Assembly: GCF_026914185.1 (NCBI RefSeq)
Contig: NC_070564.1
Span: 124,001 to 188,000 of the forward strand
Reading direction: 5' to 3'
From: Puccinia triticina
Lineage: Eukaryota; Basidiomycota; Pucciniomycetes; Pucciniales; Pucciniaceae
DNA length: 64,000 nucleotides
Positions 43,583 to 62,950 of the stretch are shown here, one piece after another (position 1 is the stretch's first letter; every line of letters begins with the position of its first letter). The translations under genes and the position numbers were made by a program. The notes below the pieces were generated by a model that was not told the origin of the DNA, searched no databases, and was given only the letters and a program-made list of their open reading frames with translations.

Positions 43583-46500
43583 ATGATTAACCAAAATATC
43601 AATAGGAACTCTTCGATTGGCGGAATCGCTGGAATCGCCCTCATCCAGCTATTTCTCACCTTTGTCATGGCGCCCCTTCCGCCGGAAGCAACACGTGCTC
43701 TGCTTGATTTTGATCGACAAATCGGACAACAACATCACGAACTCGACGATTGGAGACAATTAACGCCTGGGCCTCTGCACCTCCTGAACGACCACGCCGG
43801 CCATACAACTTCATTATTACCAGTTGAGCCTCAATTCGAACAAAGACACGCCCTTGGGGTGCAACTTGCCGCACCAGATGGTGATTGGTTTGAATGGCGG
43901 TCTATTCCCTCTCCTGCCGAAATCCCAAGAAGCTCGTCGATACAAATGCCAGCTTCACATTCAAAGCAATTAGCGCACCAAAAGTTCCCCGATGGTTCTG
44001 CAATTCAATCCTCCCCAAATCAGCTTCGAGTTGAAGACTACATTCAAAGTGGTTTGTTTGATTTTGCAAGCTTAGATTACGAACAGTCCCAACATGAAAA
44101 TATCCACTTGCATCCCCAAAGCCTGGAAAACCCGATAACAGTAACCACACCATCAGAGTCCAAGCATTCGCCTATTCAACGGTCCAATCTACCCGGCATC
44201 TTGAAAGGTAATCCTTCTACATTATGGATGGCCTACTTTTCCAGTTTAATAACTGAATTTTCTATCTTGCGCGAGAGCAGGACACGATTCAGTTTCTAGC
44301 CATTCAGAAATTTGTAACGAACCCAGCGACAATTTTTCATCTCTGAAGAGGGACCTCCTTGCAGGCAGCCCGGATCATCCAAAATCAAAAAAAGTCAAGC
44401 AGTCAGCAAAACAAACACCGGAAAGCACTGCTGTGATCCCCCAAACTCCGCAAAGCTTCATAAAACCAATGGATCATCTTGCTAAACTCATAGTAACTCT
44501 TGATATGTTTTCCCTGGAATTAAAACAATATGGATTGATCAATAAACTGCATTTCCCTGGGTATACCAGGTGGAAATCAGGCCATTTATTTCAGACAAAC
44601 GTACTCCATAGTAGCAAACTTTGGGAAAATCTCAACAGCAATGTCAAGGGCTCCGATTTGCCTGTTCTGATTCAAGAAGCTATTGCATATGGAAAGGCTC
44701 GTACTCAACCTACAGCTCTCGAACAAACTACAGTCCTCGCACGAGCCAAGATGTTGCTAGAGGAGATATTCTTCCGTGACGGTCAATTTCTCATAGCTTT
44801 TTCTGCTTCAATATTGGTCGGAGAATCCAACAGGAAAAATCTCAACCCACATAAAAAATCTGAAATACTTGAATTGAGATTGAATGAGCAAGAGAAACTT
44901 CTTCATTGGTTGGCCAAACTAGTTCACATTAGAAATGCCGGAAGGAGATCAGAAGCCTCGACAGATTTGTTTGAACCGTCAGAAGTTGAAGAGGGAAATC
45001 GCGCACTAGACTCATTCTGTCAACTGTTTTTTTACTATTGTACGGCTCCCGGACGAGATCTTAATTATGAATTGGTGGAAATAAAAACGGACACAAAAAA
45101 AAAGACTAGGAAAGTCACCTTTGGTGATGCAATTCAAACATTACTTGCGATCAACGCCTTAGGAATTTACTTGAAATGCAACAATTTAACTACGGGTTTA
45201 CTTCGCGCACGGAGGGAAACTCGTTGCGCACGGGAATTTCCGTTGACTCGACGTCACGTGACGTCGGGCCCCCCTCCGTGCGCGCCACCAGCTCCCCTCA
45301 AAAAACTATCCGCACACGGGGGTGCCGTGCGGTGACAGGTGGCCGGGGTGAAGCACTCCGGCCATCCGGAGGAAACAATCCCCTCGATGACCGGCACAGA
45401 CCGGTCATCGAGAGGGTATATCACATCTCTCTCGATGACCGGCATTCCGGTCATCGAGAGGACAAATCCCCCTCGATGACCGGTACAGACCGGTCATCGG
45501 GAGGCTACATCCCTCTCGATGACCGGTACAGACCGGTCATCGGGAGGCTACATCCCTCTCGATGACCGGTACAGACCGGTCATCGGGAGGCTGCATCCCT
45601 CTCGATGACCGGTACAGACCGGTCATCGGGAGGCTACATCCCTCTCGATGACCGGTACAGACCGGTCATCGGGAGGCTACATCCCTCTCGATGACCGGCA
45701 TAGACCGGTCATCGGGAGGCTACATCCCTCTCGATGACCGGCATAGACCGGTCATCGGGAGGCTACATCCCTCTCGATGACCGGCATAGACCGGTCATCG
45801 AGAGGCTACATCCCTCTCGATGACCGGAGTAGACCGGTCACCGAGAGGATACACCTCTCTCAATGACCGGCATTCCGGTCATCGAGAGAACACATCTCTC
45901 TCAATGACCGGCATTCCGGTCATCGAGAGAACACATCTCTCTCAATGACCGGCATTCCGGTCATCGAGAGGGATGTAGCCTCCCGATGACCGGTCTGTAC
46001 CGGTCATCGAGGGGGATTTGTCCTCTCGATGACCGGAATGCCGGTCATCGAGAGAGGTGTATCCTCTCGGTGACCGGTCTACTCCGGTCATCGAGAGGGA
46101 TGTAGCCTCTCGATGACCGGTCTATGCCGGTCATCGAGAGGGATGTAGCCTCCCGATGACCGGTCTATGCCGGTCATCGAGAGGGATGTAGCCTCCCGAT
46201 GACCGGTCTATGCCGGTCATCGAGAGGGATGTAGCCTCCCGATGACCGGTCTGTACCGGTCATCGAGAGGGATGTAGCCTCCCGATGACCGGTCTGTGCC
46301 GGTCATCGAGGGGATTGTTTCCTCCGGATGGCCGGAGTGCTTCACCCCGGCCACCTGTCACCGCACGGCACCCCCGTGTGCGGATAGTTTTTTGAGGGGA
46401 GCTGGTGGCGCGCACGGAGGGGGGCCCGACGTCACGTGACGTCGAGTCAACGGAAATTCCCGTGCGCAACGAGTTTCCCTCCGTGCGCGAAGTAAACCCG

Positions 46501-46678
46501 TTTAACTAAATGGAAGAAGCTATTTCCATCAGATGTTGACTTCACCAGCATGTTTGCTTTCCTCAAGCAATCTGAGTATAGTACGCATAATTTATTTAAC
46601 CTAAAAACACATTGGATTAAATGGGGAGAAATGAAGGTCTTGCCGTGGGAGAACAAACAAATACATCAAAAATTTTGA
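43583..46678 (+). pseudogene. Predicted secreted protein gene split by a foldback transposon
   Basis: Exon 1 (43583-44217) begins with a likely signal peptide: polar n-region, hydrophobic core IGGIAGIALIQLFLTFVMA, then PLPPEA. A 63-base intron (44218-44280, GTAATC...CAG) leads to exon 2, which runs without stop to 45192. There a 1308-base foldback element with an 8-base duplication (TTTAACTA) is inserted; the frame resumes beyond it and ends at TGA 46676-46678. In the present allele translation runs into the element and stops at 45333-45335, replacing about 57 native C-terminal residues with about 48 foreign ones. No known domain was recognised; the style (signal peptide plus Leu/Lys-rich body) resembles lineage-specific rust secreted proteins. 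Host function is unknown. Confidence 0.75.
45193..46500. mobile_element. Foldback transposon: perfect 219-bp arms, palindromic-unit array, 8-bp TSD
   Basis: CGGGTTTACTTCGCGCACGG starts the left arm; its exact complement ends the element at 46500. The outer ~219 bases of each arm match perfectly by eye. TTTAACTA flanks both sides (45185-45192, 46501-46508). Between the arms lie about 22 units of ~42-44 bases, each itself an inverted repeat of the type CTCGATGACCGGT-acag-ACCGGTCATCGRGAG joined by CTACATCC-like spacers; spacer orientation flips near 45.96 kb. Each arm contains CGACGTCACGTGACGTCG. No protein is encoded. An 8-base duplication suggests hAT-type mobilisation. Confidence 0.92.
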
Positions 46679-47658: not shown

Positions 47659-50522
47659 TAAGGATGGCTATAGGGCGGGCCGGCCAACGGGCCGCCCGAA
47701 CCCGCGCGGGTTTGGGCCGGGTTCGGACACACATTTCAGATAATAATTTAAAATCGGCCCGGCCCGTCCGACCCGTTTAGCAAACGGGCGGCTCGCGGGC
47801 GGCCCGCGGGCGCCCGTGGGCCGCCCCCGGTCGGGGGACCGGTGTTCTCCGAAGCGGGACTGGCTGCCGCTGGCAGCTGCAGTGCCACCTCAGCCAACTA
47901 CGAACTAGCCATCAACAGTCAACCGGTGACCAACTCACCCCCACGGGCCACAATGGCAAAGAGAAAGACACGCGCACACCCTGGTTCGTCCGAGGAAGAA
48001 GGCAAAACTGACGATATCCGCGTCGCCGAGAGATCGGAACCAGAAACTCCATTGACTACGCAGCAGGAGATCGATAGGCAGCCACCTAGAACTGAGGCTT
48101 CAGTCCCCCAGACACCAGCCCCCGCCGACAGTTTGAGTGAATCACAAGAAACCGCCAAAGGGAGCTTGTTCAAAAAGCGTAAACTCACCAGCAAGGTGTG
48201 GGACCATTTCAAGAAGATTGAAGAAGGTGGGCCGTCCTGTTCTTATCCCTCTTAGTTTCTATAAGTATAGATATAACTGACTCGGATCTTTTGAATTTTG
48301 ATATTGCAATCATCAGGAGGTGTATCGAAGGCAATATGCAACTACTGCAACCTCAAACTCTCGGCTACATCATCGGCAGGAACGAACCATCTCCGACGAC
48401 ATTCTGATCGCTGTATCACAGACAGCGGGGCTCTCGTTCAACACAGACAAGGACTTCTCGGTTTCACCAGCTCCTCCCAAACCACCAGCAACCGTGTTTG
48501 GATCTTCTCTCAAGAAAAAACTCGAGAGAAATTTGCAAAAGCGATTATTGAGCATGAATACCCGTTCGCGATGGCCGATCATCCGGGATTCCGAGAGTTT
48601 ATGGAGTCAGCCCAGCCCAACTTCACCATGCCCCGACGAAAGGCAGTGCGGAGTGATTGTATGGCTATCTACAATCACATGAAGCAAGGCGAAATGGCGA
48701 TGATGGCGAAAGCAAAGATGATCTCCTTAACCACTGACATGTGGACAGCCTCCGATCTGACTGGCTACATGGTAATAACGGCCCACTACATCAACAAGTG
48801 GGAACTGAACAAGAAGATCATCAGCTTCCGGCCCCTCCCGCCTCCGCACACTGGCCATGCGATCTCGGAGCGAATATGTCAAGTTCTCAACGATTGGAAG
48901 AGCTTGAACAAAGTCGCTTTCGTTACCCTTGACAATGCTGTCAACAACACGGCAGCTATGACCCGGCTACAGCGATTGATAAAGGATCGCTCGGTTGCTA
49001 GCTCAACTCCTACGACGTCGCCATACTTCCATGTCCGATGTATGGCGCATGTCATCAACCTAGTGGTCAAGGATGGTCTCAAGGTCGTAGGTCCCGCAGT
49101 CGAGTCACTCCGAAATAGTGTTCAGTACATACACGGATCTTCGTCTCGGATGGATGCCTTCAACAAGGCTCTTGTTTCTGTGAATCTAGCCGAAGACATG
49201 AAACACCCATCCAAGGATGTACCGACCCGATGGAACGCGACCTTCTTAATGATTGAGTCATCAATGCCATGTAAGTTGGCCTTCCAGCAAATCGATCTTG
49301 AAGACGACAAATTTGAAACTTGCCCAAGCGAAGCACAATGGGAGGAACTCGGCGTCATCCAAGATTTCCTCGAGCCTTTCTACCAAGGCAAGCTTATTTG
49401 AATCTTACTGTGAGCATCCATCAAACATCTACTGATATATTTTCTCTCAGCCACCCTTGTCTTAAGTGGAACACAGTATCCAACCATCAACCATGCCTAC
49501 CGCGCAATGACCGCCATTCAGAAGCAACTAGCCCACTACGCCGAACCTCGCACCTGCCCTAGTGAAATAGAAACTCGCCTCCATGACATGGTCAAGCCAA
49601 TGCTCGAGAAGTTTCACAAGTACTGGGATTCATCAAAGGAGCTTGCGGCGATCGGACTGATTCTAGACCCACGATATAAGATTCGTTATCTTCGCTACAG
49701 CCTCGAGCAGCAATCCCACCTCCCAACATCTGAGGTTGATTCTTTCACAGCAAAGGTTAGGTCTTCCATCCTATTGCTTTGGAACCAATATGTACCCCCT
49801 CAATCACCTGTTGCCGAACGATCCACTCAACCCGCCTCAACGGCCAAGGTTAAAAAGATCAACGAAGATCTATCCGGGTTCAACGAATACATGGCCGGTA
49901 CCATGTCTGGACATCAACTCAACGCGCCCGGAGCCGAATTGGATTTGTATCTAGAAGAACGGAACGTTGTCTGTGACCCCAATAGCGAGGACAATCAGTT
50001 CAATATTCTTGGCTGGTGGGAGGGAAATGCGGCTCGATTCCCTTCATTGTCCCAGTTTGCAAGAATAATGCTCATGATTCCCATGACATCTGTGGCATCA
50101 GAGTCGGCTTTCTCAACGAGTGGGCGTGTGCTGGACGATTATCGGATGCGGCTTAATGATGAAACGGTCGACGCATTGTTGTGCACTCAAGACTGGATCA
50201 AAGCAGCCAGGGCGAAGGAATCATCTTAAATTTCTTTTTTATTTTCATATGTTGTAACCGGTGAAGGGTTGTAATGCAACCTGAGTCTGACTGGTGAAAT
50301 AGCGGGCGGCCCGCAGGCTGCCCGCAGGCTGCCCGTGGGCTGCCCGTGGGCTGCCCGCAAATTGTAAGCCCGCGGGCTGCCCGCCACCCGCCCGTTTAGT
50401 AAACGGGTTTGGGCCGGGCTGCGTTCTTGGCTGCACTGGCCCGGCCCGGCCTGTCCGCTAACTTCACGGGCTAGCGCGGGCCGGCCCGCGGACGGCCCAA
50501 GCCCGCCCAATAGCCATCCTTA
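47659..50522 (+). mobile_element. Complete hAT transposon with 8-bp target duplication
   Basis: Ends read TAAGGATGGCTATAGGGCGG (left) and, inverted, TAAGGATGGCTATTGGGCGG (right). CTTGAGGC flanks both sides exactly (47651-47658, 50523-50530). Subterminal regions are rich in GGGCCG/CCCGCGGGC words. It carries one intact transposase gene. A decayed relative occupies 56034-58202. Confidence 0.92.
47953..50229 (+). CDS. hAT transposase, uninterrupted, 707 residues
   Basis: Exons 47953-48226, 48317-49387 and 49451-50229. Intron 1 is GT-AG (90 bases). Intron 2 has a GC donor (AAG|GCAAGC...CTCAG, 63 bases): only this junction keeps the frame, joining FYQ to ATLVLSGTQYPT. Start ATG has context CACAATGG. 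The N-terminus is basic (MAKRKTRAH), followed by a BED finger near residues 95-130 (CNYCNLKLSATSSAGTNHL, RRHSDRC), a catalytic core (SLTTDMWTASDLTGYMVITA; VTLDNAVNNTAAM; HVRCMAHVINLVVKDGL) and a C-terminal dimerisation domain (GWWEGNAARFPSLSQFARI, SVASESAFSTSGRVL). No internal stop or frameshift was seen, so it may be active and could supply transposase to related non-autonomous elements. Confidence 0.9.
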
Positions 50523-60261: not shown

Positions 60262-61080
60262 TACACCACAGAAATTTGCTCAGCACCTGTTTATGAGTGC
60301 CTTTGCACAATTCATGCCGAGGTTTGGTCCGATCCTTGTTAGATACTGGTTCAAAGTTGGTTTGATTTTGGTCTGATCTTTGTTCAAAGAATGTTTGATG
60401 TCAGGAGCAATCTAACAGGATCCTCACTGGAATTATATGAGATGTATTGTGAAAGATAAATGTAGAACATACACCATACCTATGCTGAAACTAAGCCCAG
60501 CTATGATCAGGTGGACTCAATCCACAATGTTGACCAAATATATGAATGTTTTGACCTGATTTTTTACCTCTGTGTATACCCATACCCTGTAGATTGCTCT
60601 GCTGCATGTTTTTGTATTTTTTTGGGTCAGCCTAAATGCACTCCAAAAAAAATCCCAAAAGCATTCTAAACGTGAGTGTATGGAGTGTGCACTCAAATGA
60701 TTGTTGGAGTACAGAGTAGAATACTCCAAGTTGGCTAGAGTGCAGAACCGGGGACTCAAGAGTCTTTGGAGTGCACCACAAAGAACTTCAGTGGCCAGCA
60801 AATGTAATGAGTGCCTGTGAGTCTCACTCCATCAGATTGGAGTGCATATCCCCAGCACTCCATTCATGCATGATATTTCTCCTCCCTGAAAGGGGAGTGT
60901 AGAGCTGGAGTGCATACACTTGAACCCCAGTCCAGCAGGGTAGATATACACACCCTGTCTGGCCATCCTGTGGGCTATGTAGTACTTAATGGACACACCC
61001 CACTGACACCTCTCAATCACCGGTGTGGTACACCATGGGGGCAGGGGGAAAAAATATTTCTGGATTTGCGTGGATTCACA
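60262..61080. other. Gene-free DNA leading into a decayed palindromic array
   Basis: No exon seen. From about 60.65 kb phrases like GGAGTGCA/TGCACTCC recur in both orientations, suggesting an old foldback repeat. Confidence 0.4.
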
Positions 61081-62950
61081 TCCTCTTGATGACCAGTCTG
61101 AGCCGGTCATTGAAGGGACTCACTCCTTTTGATGACCTGTACACACCAGACATTGAGAGGTGTGACTCCCCTCAATGACTGGTACAGAACACCATTGAGG
61201 AGATTCACACCTCCTTCAATGACTGGTCCGTGCTGGTCATTGAGGGGAGTCACACCTCTCGATGACTGGTGTATGCTACAGGTCATCAAGAGGAGTGATT
61301 CCCCTCAATGACCGGTACAGACCGGCATTGAGGAGATTCACACCTTCTCTCAATGACTGATCCATGCCGGTCATCAAGAGGACTCCCACCTCTCTATTTC
61401 CGGATTGTGCCGGTCATTGAGGGGATTCACACCTCTTGACACTACAAACATTTATTATTTTGCCCAAAAATAAAATAAAAGTCAACATGAAAAAAATAAA
61501 ACCAAAATTTCACTCAGGGGAACAAACTGAGCATGCTGAGCCAAAAAAATAAAATGTCCCAAACTGAGCAAAAAACATTGGACAATGTTTTGGGATGGTT
61601 TTTTTTCACGGGCCTGGCGGGCCTGGAGCGGGCTTGAGCGGGCCTTGAGCGGGCCTGAGACGGGCCTGCCCCAAAAGCACATTGGCTCAGTATTGAAGAA
61701 GTTTTGCCTTGCCCTGGGAGCTTCTTGGGCTTTTGATGGGCCCAAAATCTCAAAATGGGCTTTTGGTGGTCTAGAAGTATCAACCTGGGCCAATGAATAG
61801 CCCATGGGCCTTTGAATTCCCAGAAAGCCCACCATGAGCCCCCACATAGCTAATGGGTTGTTGGTAGCCCATGAAGATCTCCATGGGCCAACAGATACCC
61901 TCATGGGCTTTTGGTGGCCCATGAAGATCTCCATGGGCCAAGAGATATCCTCATGGGCTTTTGGTGGTTCAAAAAGCTCCCCATGGGCTTTTTGTGGCCC
62001 AGAAAGGAAGCAAAAAGCCCATGGGATCCTATGATGGAAATTTTCCATTGGAAGTATCTGTTGGCCCATAGGGATCTTCATGGGCCACCAAGAGCCCATT
62101 AGCTATGTGGGGGCTCATGGTGGGCTTTCTGGGAATTCAAAGGCCCATGGGCTATTCATTGGCCCAGGTTGATACTTCTAGACCACCAAAAGCCCATGTT
62201 GAGATTTTGGGCCCATCAAAAGCCCAAGAAGCTCCCAGGGCAAGGCAAAACTTCTTCAATACTGAGCCAATGTGCTTTTGGGGCAGGCCCGTCTCAGGCG
62301 CTCAAGCCCGCTCCAGGCCCGCCAGGCCCGTGAAAAAAAACCATCCCAAAACATTGTCCAATGTTTTTTGCTCAGTTTGGGACATTTTATTTTTTTGGCT
62401 CAGCATGCTCAGTTTGTTCCCCTGAGTGAAATTTTGGTTTTATTTTTTTCATGTTGACTTTTATTTTTTTTTTGGGCAAAATATTAAATGTTTGTAGTGT
62501 GATGACCAGTACAGACCGGTCATCAAGAGGAGGTGTTACTCCTGTTTCCCCTTGATTTTTTTCCAGGTAATCAAGAGCAGTAACACCTCCACTTGATGAC
62601 CAGTCTGTGCCAGTAATTGAGGGTACTTTCACCTCTCAATGGCCGGTCTATATGGGTCATTGAGAGGAGTAACACCTCCCCTCAATAATCATCAGTCTGT
62701 GCCGGTCATTGAGGGAACTTACACCTCTTGATGACTGGTCAATACAGGTCATCAAGGGGAATAATTCCTCTTGATGACCAGTCTGTACTGGAAATCGAGG
62801 GGAGTAACATCTCCTCTCAATGACCAGTCTGTACCGGTCATCAAGGGGAGTCTCATGTCCTCTTGGATGACCAGAACAGACAGGTCATTGAGGGGGGGGG
62901 GCACTCGGCCATTGAGTGGGGTAAGTACTCCACTCAATGGCCATTGAGTG
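61081..62950. repeat. Decayed GATGACCGGT palindromic-unit array, split by a foldback element
   Basis: 61081-61436 and 62503-62950 contain units such as CTCAATGACYGGTAC-aga-CCGGTCATCGAG with many C-to-T and G-to-A differences (TTGATGACCAGT, CATTGAGG) and spacers such as AGTAACACCTCC. The motif and ~42-48-base spacing match the young foldback at 45.2-46.5 kb. The array is interrupted at 61440-62499 by a CACTA-ended element. Confidence 0.8.
61440..62499. mobile_element. CACTA-ended foldback element, ~500-bp arms, TGA duplication
   Basis: CACTACAAACATTTATTATT at the left is matched by the inverted right end GTAGTG. TGA flanks both (61437-61439, 62500-62502). The arms run about 500 bases each with only small differences and meet near 61.97-62.05 kb; the left arm has an extra GAGCGGGCCTTGAGCGGGCC unit. 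Inside the arms are direct ~60-base units of TTGGTGGCCCATGAAGATCT type. No protein of its own; long frames are by-products of the symmetry. Confidence 0.85.

What the first reader, a model, noticed from the sequence alone, without database searches (positions are those of the whole stretch)
45193..46500. Young foldback transposon whose interior is an array of palindromes
Perfect ~219-base arms, an exact 8-base duplication (TTTAACTA) and about 22 internal ~43-base units, each itself an inverted repeat around GATGACCGGT...ACCGGTCATC. The symmetry is hierarchical: palindromic units inside a palindromic element, with spacer orientation flipping near the centre. The whole transcript would fold into nested hairpins. 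It encodes nothing, so it relies on a transposase in trans, and its age is near zero by arm identity. I do not know a described family with this architecture.
Basis: partly seen in the sequence, partly recalled or inferred. Interest (0 to 1): 0.9.

Follow-up and report, generated by a model that had tools for sequence, protein, structure and literature searches.

The report
Rust foldback transposon of stacked palindromes
This is a recently spread, gene-less jumping element from a rust-like fungal genome, made of two mirror-image halves filled with small palindromes; its ends resemble those of Mutator-like transposons in the same genome that encode the kind of enzyme it lacks.

Summary
The element spans 45193-46500 (1308 nt), with 218-nt perfect arms, an exact 8-base target duplication and 22 palindromic units of about 43 bases. 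It is a dispersed family, not an assembly artefact. The end motif occurs 126 times at up to 2 mismatches (reversed control 2). Of 35 fetched two-ended copies, 27 carry exact 8-bp, AT-rich duplications. A related locus shows the empty site.

The superfamily can be named. Two larger elements with related ends (78-85% identical) and exact 8-bp duplications encode MULE-domain ORFs, so this is a non-autonomous foldback Mutator-like (MULE) element. Foldback MULEs with long, module- or repeat-built arms are already described (Tm1, MuTAnT).

What is unusual is the arm filling: an ordered series of palindromes, mirrored about one flip. Whole units change faster than the arms: four copies with no differences over both 190-nt arms carry 14, 20, 22 and 22 units. 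The same palindrome occurs 2,623 times genome-wide, and fills at least one element with unrelated ends and a 9-bp duplication. The array therefore looks like a module shared between transposon families. Its function is unknown.

The parts
45193..46500 (.). whole non-autonomous foldback element, 1308 nt
45185..45192 (.). left copy of the 8-bp target duplication TTTAACTA
46501..46508 (.). right copy of the 8-bp target duplication TTTAACTA
45193..45410 (+). left perfect arm (218 nt); 0 differences in its first 190 nt from L034, L037 and L039
46283..46500 (-). right perfect arm (218 nt)
45193..45246 (+). terminal 54 bp; very low non-CpG divergence (0.0032) across 58 arms of 29 copies; part of the stretch shared with MULE elements
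45249..45266 (.). perfect 18-bp palindrome CGACGTCACGTGACGTCG in the left arm (mate at 46427-46444)
45383..45968 (+). left half of the array: 14 palindromic units, order A E B B B B B C C C D E E E by loop type
45982..46310 (-). right half of the array: 8 units in mirrored orientation, b e d c c c b a
44253..45191 (+). open frame of unknown family (no Pfam match) that the element interrupts; a paralogue at C7:231300-231700 is uninterrupted
61078..61439 (.). degraded array of the same palindrome (65-70% alike), no CGGGTTTAC ends found
62501..62888 (.). second degraded array of the same palindrome, no CGGGTTTAC ends found

Best explanation
A recently amplified, non-autonomous foldback member of the Mutator-like (MULE) superfamily. 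Shown: the terminal stretch (roughly positions 1-91, up to 129) is shared with larger elements that encode a MULE-domain protein with a FAR1/AFT-type DNA-binding region; both kinds are flanked by 8-bp AT-rich target duplications; many dispersed copies exist; an empty site exists. Inferred: a MULE transposase recognises those ends in trans, cuts the element out and inserts it at an AT-rich site with an 8-bp stagger. Inferred: the array is an extension of the inverted-repeat arms that gains and loses whole 43-bp palindromic units by slippage or unequal exchange, while keeping unit order and the single central flip. It is probably not needed for MULE mobility as such, because the seven MULE loci examined lack it. 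It may help transposase or host-factor binding, or be carried as a passenger.
For: End motif 126 hits at up to 2 mismatches, control 2. Exact 8-bp duplication in 27 of 35 copies, up to 1 mismatch in 30 of 35; cross-element control 7 of 1190 pairings; 9-bp exact in 1, 10-bp in 0. MULE element L083 (C7:2461405-2465763): both ends match the arm (85% over 91 nt, 82% over 85 nt), exact duplication AAAATATA; L084+L085 (C18): 81% over 90 and 78% over 129 nt at its two ends, exact TAAAAATA. PF10551 MULE E=2.1e-28, AFT 2.7e-8, FAR1 2.1e-7 in L083; PF10551 5.4e-9 in L084. Of 3 further MULE loci picked by protein match or frame length alone (L088, L091, L092), 2 have an arm match near the transposase frame (79% over 128 nt; 72% over 69) and the third an end-like 20-mer with 5 mismatches. 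Non-CpG divergence is 0.003-0.004 at arm positions 1-97 but 0.019-0.032 at 98-190. Empty paralogue with a single target copy and an open frame across it. Whole-unit turnover with unchanged arms.
Against: No MULE copy with ends as close as those between array copies was found; the best both-ended MULE match is about 85% over 91 nt. No intact helper was shown: the L083 protein lies in two overlapping frames and the L084 copy has stops. L083, L084, L089 and L090 were picked because an end lay near them, and L088-L092 each show one end only. No excision or transposition was observed. With CpG sites included the conservation contrast is small (0.0125 and 0.0168 for 1-54 and 55-97 against 0.0178 and 0.0309 for 98-129 and 130-190), and indels near position 145 in some older copies may inflate the inner figure. 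8 of 35 copies lack an exact 8-bp duplication.
Confidence: 0.87

Rival explanations
1. The helper is a KDZ (Kyakuja/Dileera/Zisupton) transposon, since KDZ genes are abundant here and KDZ insertions also give 8-bp duplications.
For: At least 185 KDZ matches in the genome (capped scoring); KDZ sequence abuts arms of array elements at L059 and L056.
Against: At four further KDZ copies seen on both sides (C8, C4, C9, C12) the flanks differ and the element stops at its own end, GACCTATGTAACC inward; three of the four show exact 8-bp repeats that I read by eye (AGGGGGGT, TGCAACAC, GAGCAGCC; 4 to 6 of 8 are G or C), unlike the AT-rich ones here. None of the 13 stretches has an arm end there; only short matches to arm positions 135-162 occur. 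At L059 and L056, each seen on one side only, KDZ joins the arm at the same 8 bases CTCCCCTC, which fits two insertions into array elements.
Confidence: 0.03
2. The helper is a hAT transposon, since hAT elements also duplicate 8 bp (recalled).
For: An end at C1:8218184 has hAT-like ORFs about 5 kb inside.
Against: No right end within 13.7 kb. By eye, among the listed places (100 of 126 ends), no other close hAT relative lies within about 35 kb of an end. That end matches a MULE copy (L088) at 91% over 45 and 90% over 40 nt, so it looks like a MULE end.
Confidence: 0.03
3. The palindrome array was selected as a hairpin-forming RNA or dsRNA source that affects silencing.
For: Units fold strongly (DNA parameters); the whole element is an inverted repeat.
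Against: Changes on both stem sides (89 cells, 72 of them with matching letters) equal the number expected if the sides vary independently (87.8), so there is no excess of paired changes. No transcript or small-RNA data.
Confidence: 0.1
4. The inverted arms are an assembly or foldback-read artefact.
For: Foldback artefacts exist in long reads (PMC12870357, search listing and start of abstract only).
Against: 27 of 35 copies at different places have exact 8-bp duplications, and there is an empty paralogue.
Confidence: 0.01

Closest known systems
Tm1, Mutator/Foldback family of root-knot nematodes (PMC3169594; abstract and 12 passages seen)
   Same: Composite inverted repeats with varying numbers of a short internal repeat, MULE-domain partner, non-autonomous members (one class carries a histone-hairpin motif), duplications of 8-10 bp, mostly 9.
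   Different: Tm1 sub-repeats are about 14 bp and are not called palindromes in the passages seen; no target consensus found there; here the duplication is 8 bp and AT-rich, and the units are 43-bp palindromes in a fixed mirrored order.
MuTAnT of Medicago, and FARE1 as described in the same paper (PMC4486113; passages seen)
   Same: Long foldback arms built of modules, 218 related copies, a mudrA-like partner, strong TA target preference; FARE1 is said to carry long palindromic repeats on both ends.
   Different: No array of palindromic units is mentioned for MuTAnT in the passages seen; 9-nt duplications and TA microsatellite targets.
Galileo, P-superfamily foldback of Drosophila (PMC3688188; abstract and passages seen)
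   Same: Long, internally repetitive arms; the arm repeats were shown to hold extra transposase-binding sites.
   Different: P-element transposase with a THAP domain; different superfamily; here nothing is known to bind the repeats.
Tetris of Drosophila virilis (PMC4079207; abstract and passages seen)
   Same: Foldback with tandem repeats in the arms that also form longer arrays; 8-10 bp duplications; its authors suggest Mutator.
   Different: Its repeats (TIR-220) form satellites and no palindrome is mentioned (term count 0); here palindromic 43-bp units are shared with an element that has other ends.
MULE subgroup of plants, Phytophthora, Puccinia and fungi (PMC6446971; passages seen)
   Same: MULE transposases, FAR1 in half of the members, inverted repeats of 30-220 bp; MULE duplications 8-11 bp.
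   Different: Foldback derivatives are not mentioned (term count 0 in that text).

Membership tests
Mutator-like (MULE) superfamily, non-autonomous member | target duplication of 8-11 bp | tested here: met
   27 of 35 exact at 8 bp
Mutator-like (MULE) superfamily, non-autonomous member | ends shared with elements encoding a MULE transposase | tested here: met
   L083 and L084+L085 have both ends, duplication and PF10551 ORFs; identity 78-85%, so kinship of ends, not identity
Mutator-like (MULE) superfamily, non-autonomous member | mobilised in trans by that transposase | not testable with these tools
   no activity data
Foldback (FB-type) element | long inverted-repeat arms making up most of the element | tested here: met
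   inverted repeats I1 and I7, single flip
Foldback (FB-type) element | variable number of tandem sub-repeats within the arms | tested here: met
   4 to 33 units among 35 copies
KDZ transposon derivative | KDZ ends | tested here: not met
   KDZ ends and targets differ at the copies examined
hAT derivative | hAT gene enclosed by the same ends | tested here: not met
   none found; the one nearby end resembles a MULE end

The most novel reading that the evidence does not exclude
The palindrome array is a transferable cis module that has been taken up by unrelated foldback families of one genome: it fills elements with CGGGTTTAC ends and 8-bp duplications and at least one element with GGGTCAGCC ends and a 9-bp duplication. 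It could be a selfish repeat that spreads between transposons by exchange, or a landing platform for a shared host or transposase factor that raises transposition of whatever carries it.
Probability: 0.25. Interest if true: 0.75.

Novelty: new variant of a known kind. Interest (0 to 1): 0.52.

Why it matters
It gives a recently spread foldback family, a probable class of helper and a target preference in a rust-like genome. It also supplies a natural series of near-identical copies in which the arms are constant and the array length varies, which suits tests of how foldback arms grow. If the palindrome module really passes between transposon families, it would be a cis-acting parasite of transposons, a layer of selfishness that I know of no clear case for (recalled, not searched).

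Tried and rejected
KDZ as helper: pursued because KDZ hits lay near an end, then rejected on ends and duplications. hAT as helper: pursued through C1:8218184, rejected. Arm homogenisation by conversion: tested and not supported in general (31 private changes in one arm, 3 in both), although L022 and L047 have arms closer to each other than to any other fetched arm, which leaves room for it there. Compensatory pairing in the palindrome stems: no excess. The large gaps in the arrays of L021, L038 and L044 (about 1.1-2 kb of other sequence) were looked at and not identified. The papers library was searched for the palindrome letters (35 papers hold them; the 10 listed have titles on unrelated topics), for Puccinia with foldback (5 papers; the one opened, PMC9757828, passages on hairpin small RNAs), for foldback, Mutator-like and tandem terms, for Puccinia with MULE terms, for foldback transposon with palindrome terms and for Puccinia triticina with Mutator and hairpin terms; nothing I saw describes this family, but I opened only eight papers, in passages. 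Most subscription papers are not held. Copies in other rust genomes could not be searched with these collections.

Rows dropped: 6 copies with badly diverged arms (L025, L026, L028, L042, L052, L058) were left out of the arm-divergence and private-change counts (29 of 35 used). Eight further end pairs that I noticed were not fetched, and both lists are capped at 100 places. L086 was fetched but not counted among the 35. Loop-5 units are not in the 664, and units whose loop was not one of the typed kinds are left out of the orientation count.

Full report
What is there. The element is 45193-46500, 1308 nt, with arms perfect for 218 nt and TTTAACTA on both sides. Inside lie 22 palindromic units. 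Typing the units by their loop gives, left to right, A E B B B B B C C C D E E E, then a flip, then b e d c c c b a. The right half therefore mirrors the left in order as well as orientation, with different numbers of copies per type. The whole element is one long foldback whose inner arm is an ordered palindrome array. Across 35 copies the same rule holds: with the flip placed where it fits best, in 31 of 35 all typed units agree with a single flip, and the other four (L023, L027, L028, L049) have one or two exceptions; units with other loops were not typed. Spacing between neighbouring units less than 70 apart is 43 in 382 of 556 cases.

It is a transposon family. The 20-base end occurs 68 times on one strand and 58 on the other at up to 2 mismatches; the backward control gives 1 and 1. 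Of 35 fetched copies with two ends, 27 have an exact 8-bp duplication and 30 have at most one mismatch. At other lengths exact matches are few (6 bp: 3, 7 bp: 4, 9 bp: 1, 10 bp: 0). Pairing the left flank of one copy with the right flank of another gives 7 of 1190. The duplications are AT-rich, with T most common at positions 1, 3, 5 and 7 and A at 2, 4, 6 and 8. At the window copy, the left flank lies in an open frame of unknown family. A paralogue on C7, about 70% alike, aligns with the left flank up to the target and with the right flank from the target, has one copy of the target and stays open across it.

Which superfamily. Two larger elements have both ends: L083 (C7:2461405-2465763) with exact AAAATATA, and L084+L085 (C18:3204356-3214409, with what looks by eye like a copia element inside) with exact TAAAAATA. 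Their ends are 78-85% identical to the arm over 85-129 nt. Both encode MULE-domain protein; in L083 PF10551 has E=2.1e-28 and AFT/FAR1 DNA-binding models match an overlapping second frame; in L084 PF10551 has E=5.4e-9. Neither was shown to be intact: the L083 protein is in two frames, and the L084 copy has stops. L083, L084, L089 and L090 were found through an end lying near them, so they are not an unbiased sample. L088, L091 and L092 were picked from 143 protein matches by protein match or frame length: two of these three have an arm match, and the third an end-like 20-mer with 5 mismatches; in L088 to L092 only one end was seen. None of these seven loci contains the palindrome or an exact half of it (0 of 7). 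I conclude that the array family is a non-autonomous foldback MULE. That such a transposase moves it is inferred.

Rejected helpers. KDZ genes are common, and at L059 and L056 KDZ sequence adjoins the arm. Four further KDZ copies, seen on both sides, end differently (GACCTATGTAACC inward); three show exact 8-bp repeats, read by eye, with 4 to 6 of 8 bases G or C. L059 and L056 look like KDZ insertions into the same 8-base arm site, each seen on one side. A hAT-like gene lies about 5 kb inside one end on C1, but no second end was found within 13.7 kb and that end resembles a MULE end.

Age and evolution. Arm identity within an element does not date it: in 33 of 35 copies an arm of another element is as close as or closer than the own second arm, and 31 of 34 private changes are in one arm only. 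Recent spread is better shown by the window copy, L034, L037 and L039: no differences in any of their eight arms over 190 nt, yet 22, 22, 14 and 20 units. Arrays thus change by whole units faster than arms change by base. Arm positions 1-97 diverge at 0.003-0.004 outside CpG, against 0.019-0.032 at 98-190, as expected if the outer part is the transposase target. With CpG sites included the figures are 0.0125 (1-54), 0.0168 (55-97), 0.0178 (98-129) and 0.0309 (130-190), a much weaker contrast, and indels near position 145 in some older copies may inflate the last one. C to T and G to A make up 212 of 459 changes from the majority letter.

The palindrome beyond this family. The exact pattern GATGACCGG-N4..6-CCGGTCATC occurs 2,623 times in the 122.8-Mb assembly and its backward control 0 times. 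The 35 fetched copies hold 664 units under a looser rule, so most exact copies lie elsewhere. Five such loci on C1 were read, chosen because no known end lay beside them, and none has an arm match to the window element. One of them, L096:184-2086, is an element of its own: a 24-bp perfect terminal repeat beginning GGGTCAGCCTAAATGC, an exact 9-bp duplication TTTCTGCCC and 26 palindromes. L094 is a relative (97.5% over 318 nt of left flank). That end type occurs 411 times at up to 1 mismatch, control 0; how many of those carry the array was not tested. Spacers differ between the families but look alike by eye and keep similar periods, and the arrays of L094 and the window element align at 74% over 922 nt, largely through the palindromes; this suggests common descent of the arrays rather than chance. 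Within 664 units the core ATGACCGG (positions 5-12) differs in 0-5% of units, positions 2-4 in 16-27% and position 1 in 3%, but both-sided changes (89) equal the independent expectation (87.8), so there is no sign of selection for pairing.

What is known. Foldback MULEs are an established kind: Tm1, MuTAnT and FARE. Tetris shows arm repeats spreading as satellite-like arrays. Galileo, of another superfamily, shows that arm repeats can be binding sites. A plant MULE study finds tandem whole terminal repeats (PMC3310237, passages). A MULE subgroup that includes Puccinia, with FAR1 in half of its members, is listed in PMC6446971. What I have not seen described, within the searches, is an arm made of ordered palindromes shared between elements with different ends.

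Limits. No expression, small-RNA, excision or population data.

Noticed in passing
L096:184-2086 (C1:1893083-1894985); end type 411 hits genome-wide: A second transposon family (ends GGGTCAGCCTAAATGCACTCC, 9-bp duplication TTTCTGCCC) whose arms hold CACTCC/GGAGTGC repeats and, in this copy, 26 of the same GATGACCGG palindromes.
   Followed up: partly
L095 (C1:515700-516900), L097, L098: Further arrays of related palindromes with other loops, spacers and flanks (for L095, GGTACCCG repeats); their ends were not worked out.
   Followed up: partly
L059:6968-6969 and L056:5730-5740: KDZ sequence joining array-element arms at the same 8 bases CTCCCCTC in two places (one side seen each); three KDZ copies elsewhere have 8-bp repeats with 4 to 6 of 8 G or C, unlike the AT-rich ones of the array family.
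   Followed up: partly
window 61078-61439 and 62501-62888: Degraded arrays of the same palindrome in the window, without recognisable ends.
   Followed up: partly
L092:107-733, L083:625-1239: MULE loci carry a second frame with a GDGHCSFRAAA-like stretch that resembles an OTU-type cysteine protease (recalled resemblance; no Pfam match).
   Followed up: no
window 48295-49398: A hAT-type frame about 1.8 kb from the element; closest named relative at 71% identity in Puccinia triticina.
   Followed up: no
L043 and L046: Two copies with the same duplication TATAAATA and the same next bases on the right (TAGGTG), so probably inserted into the same repeat at two places.
   Followed up: no
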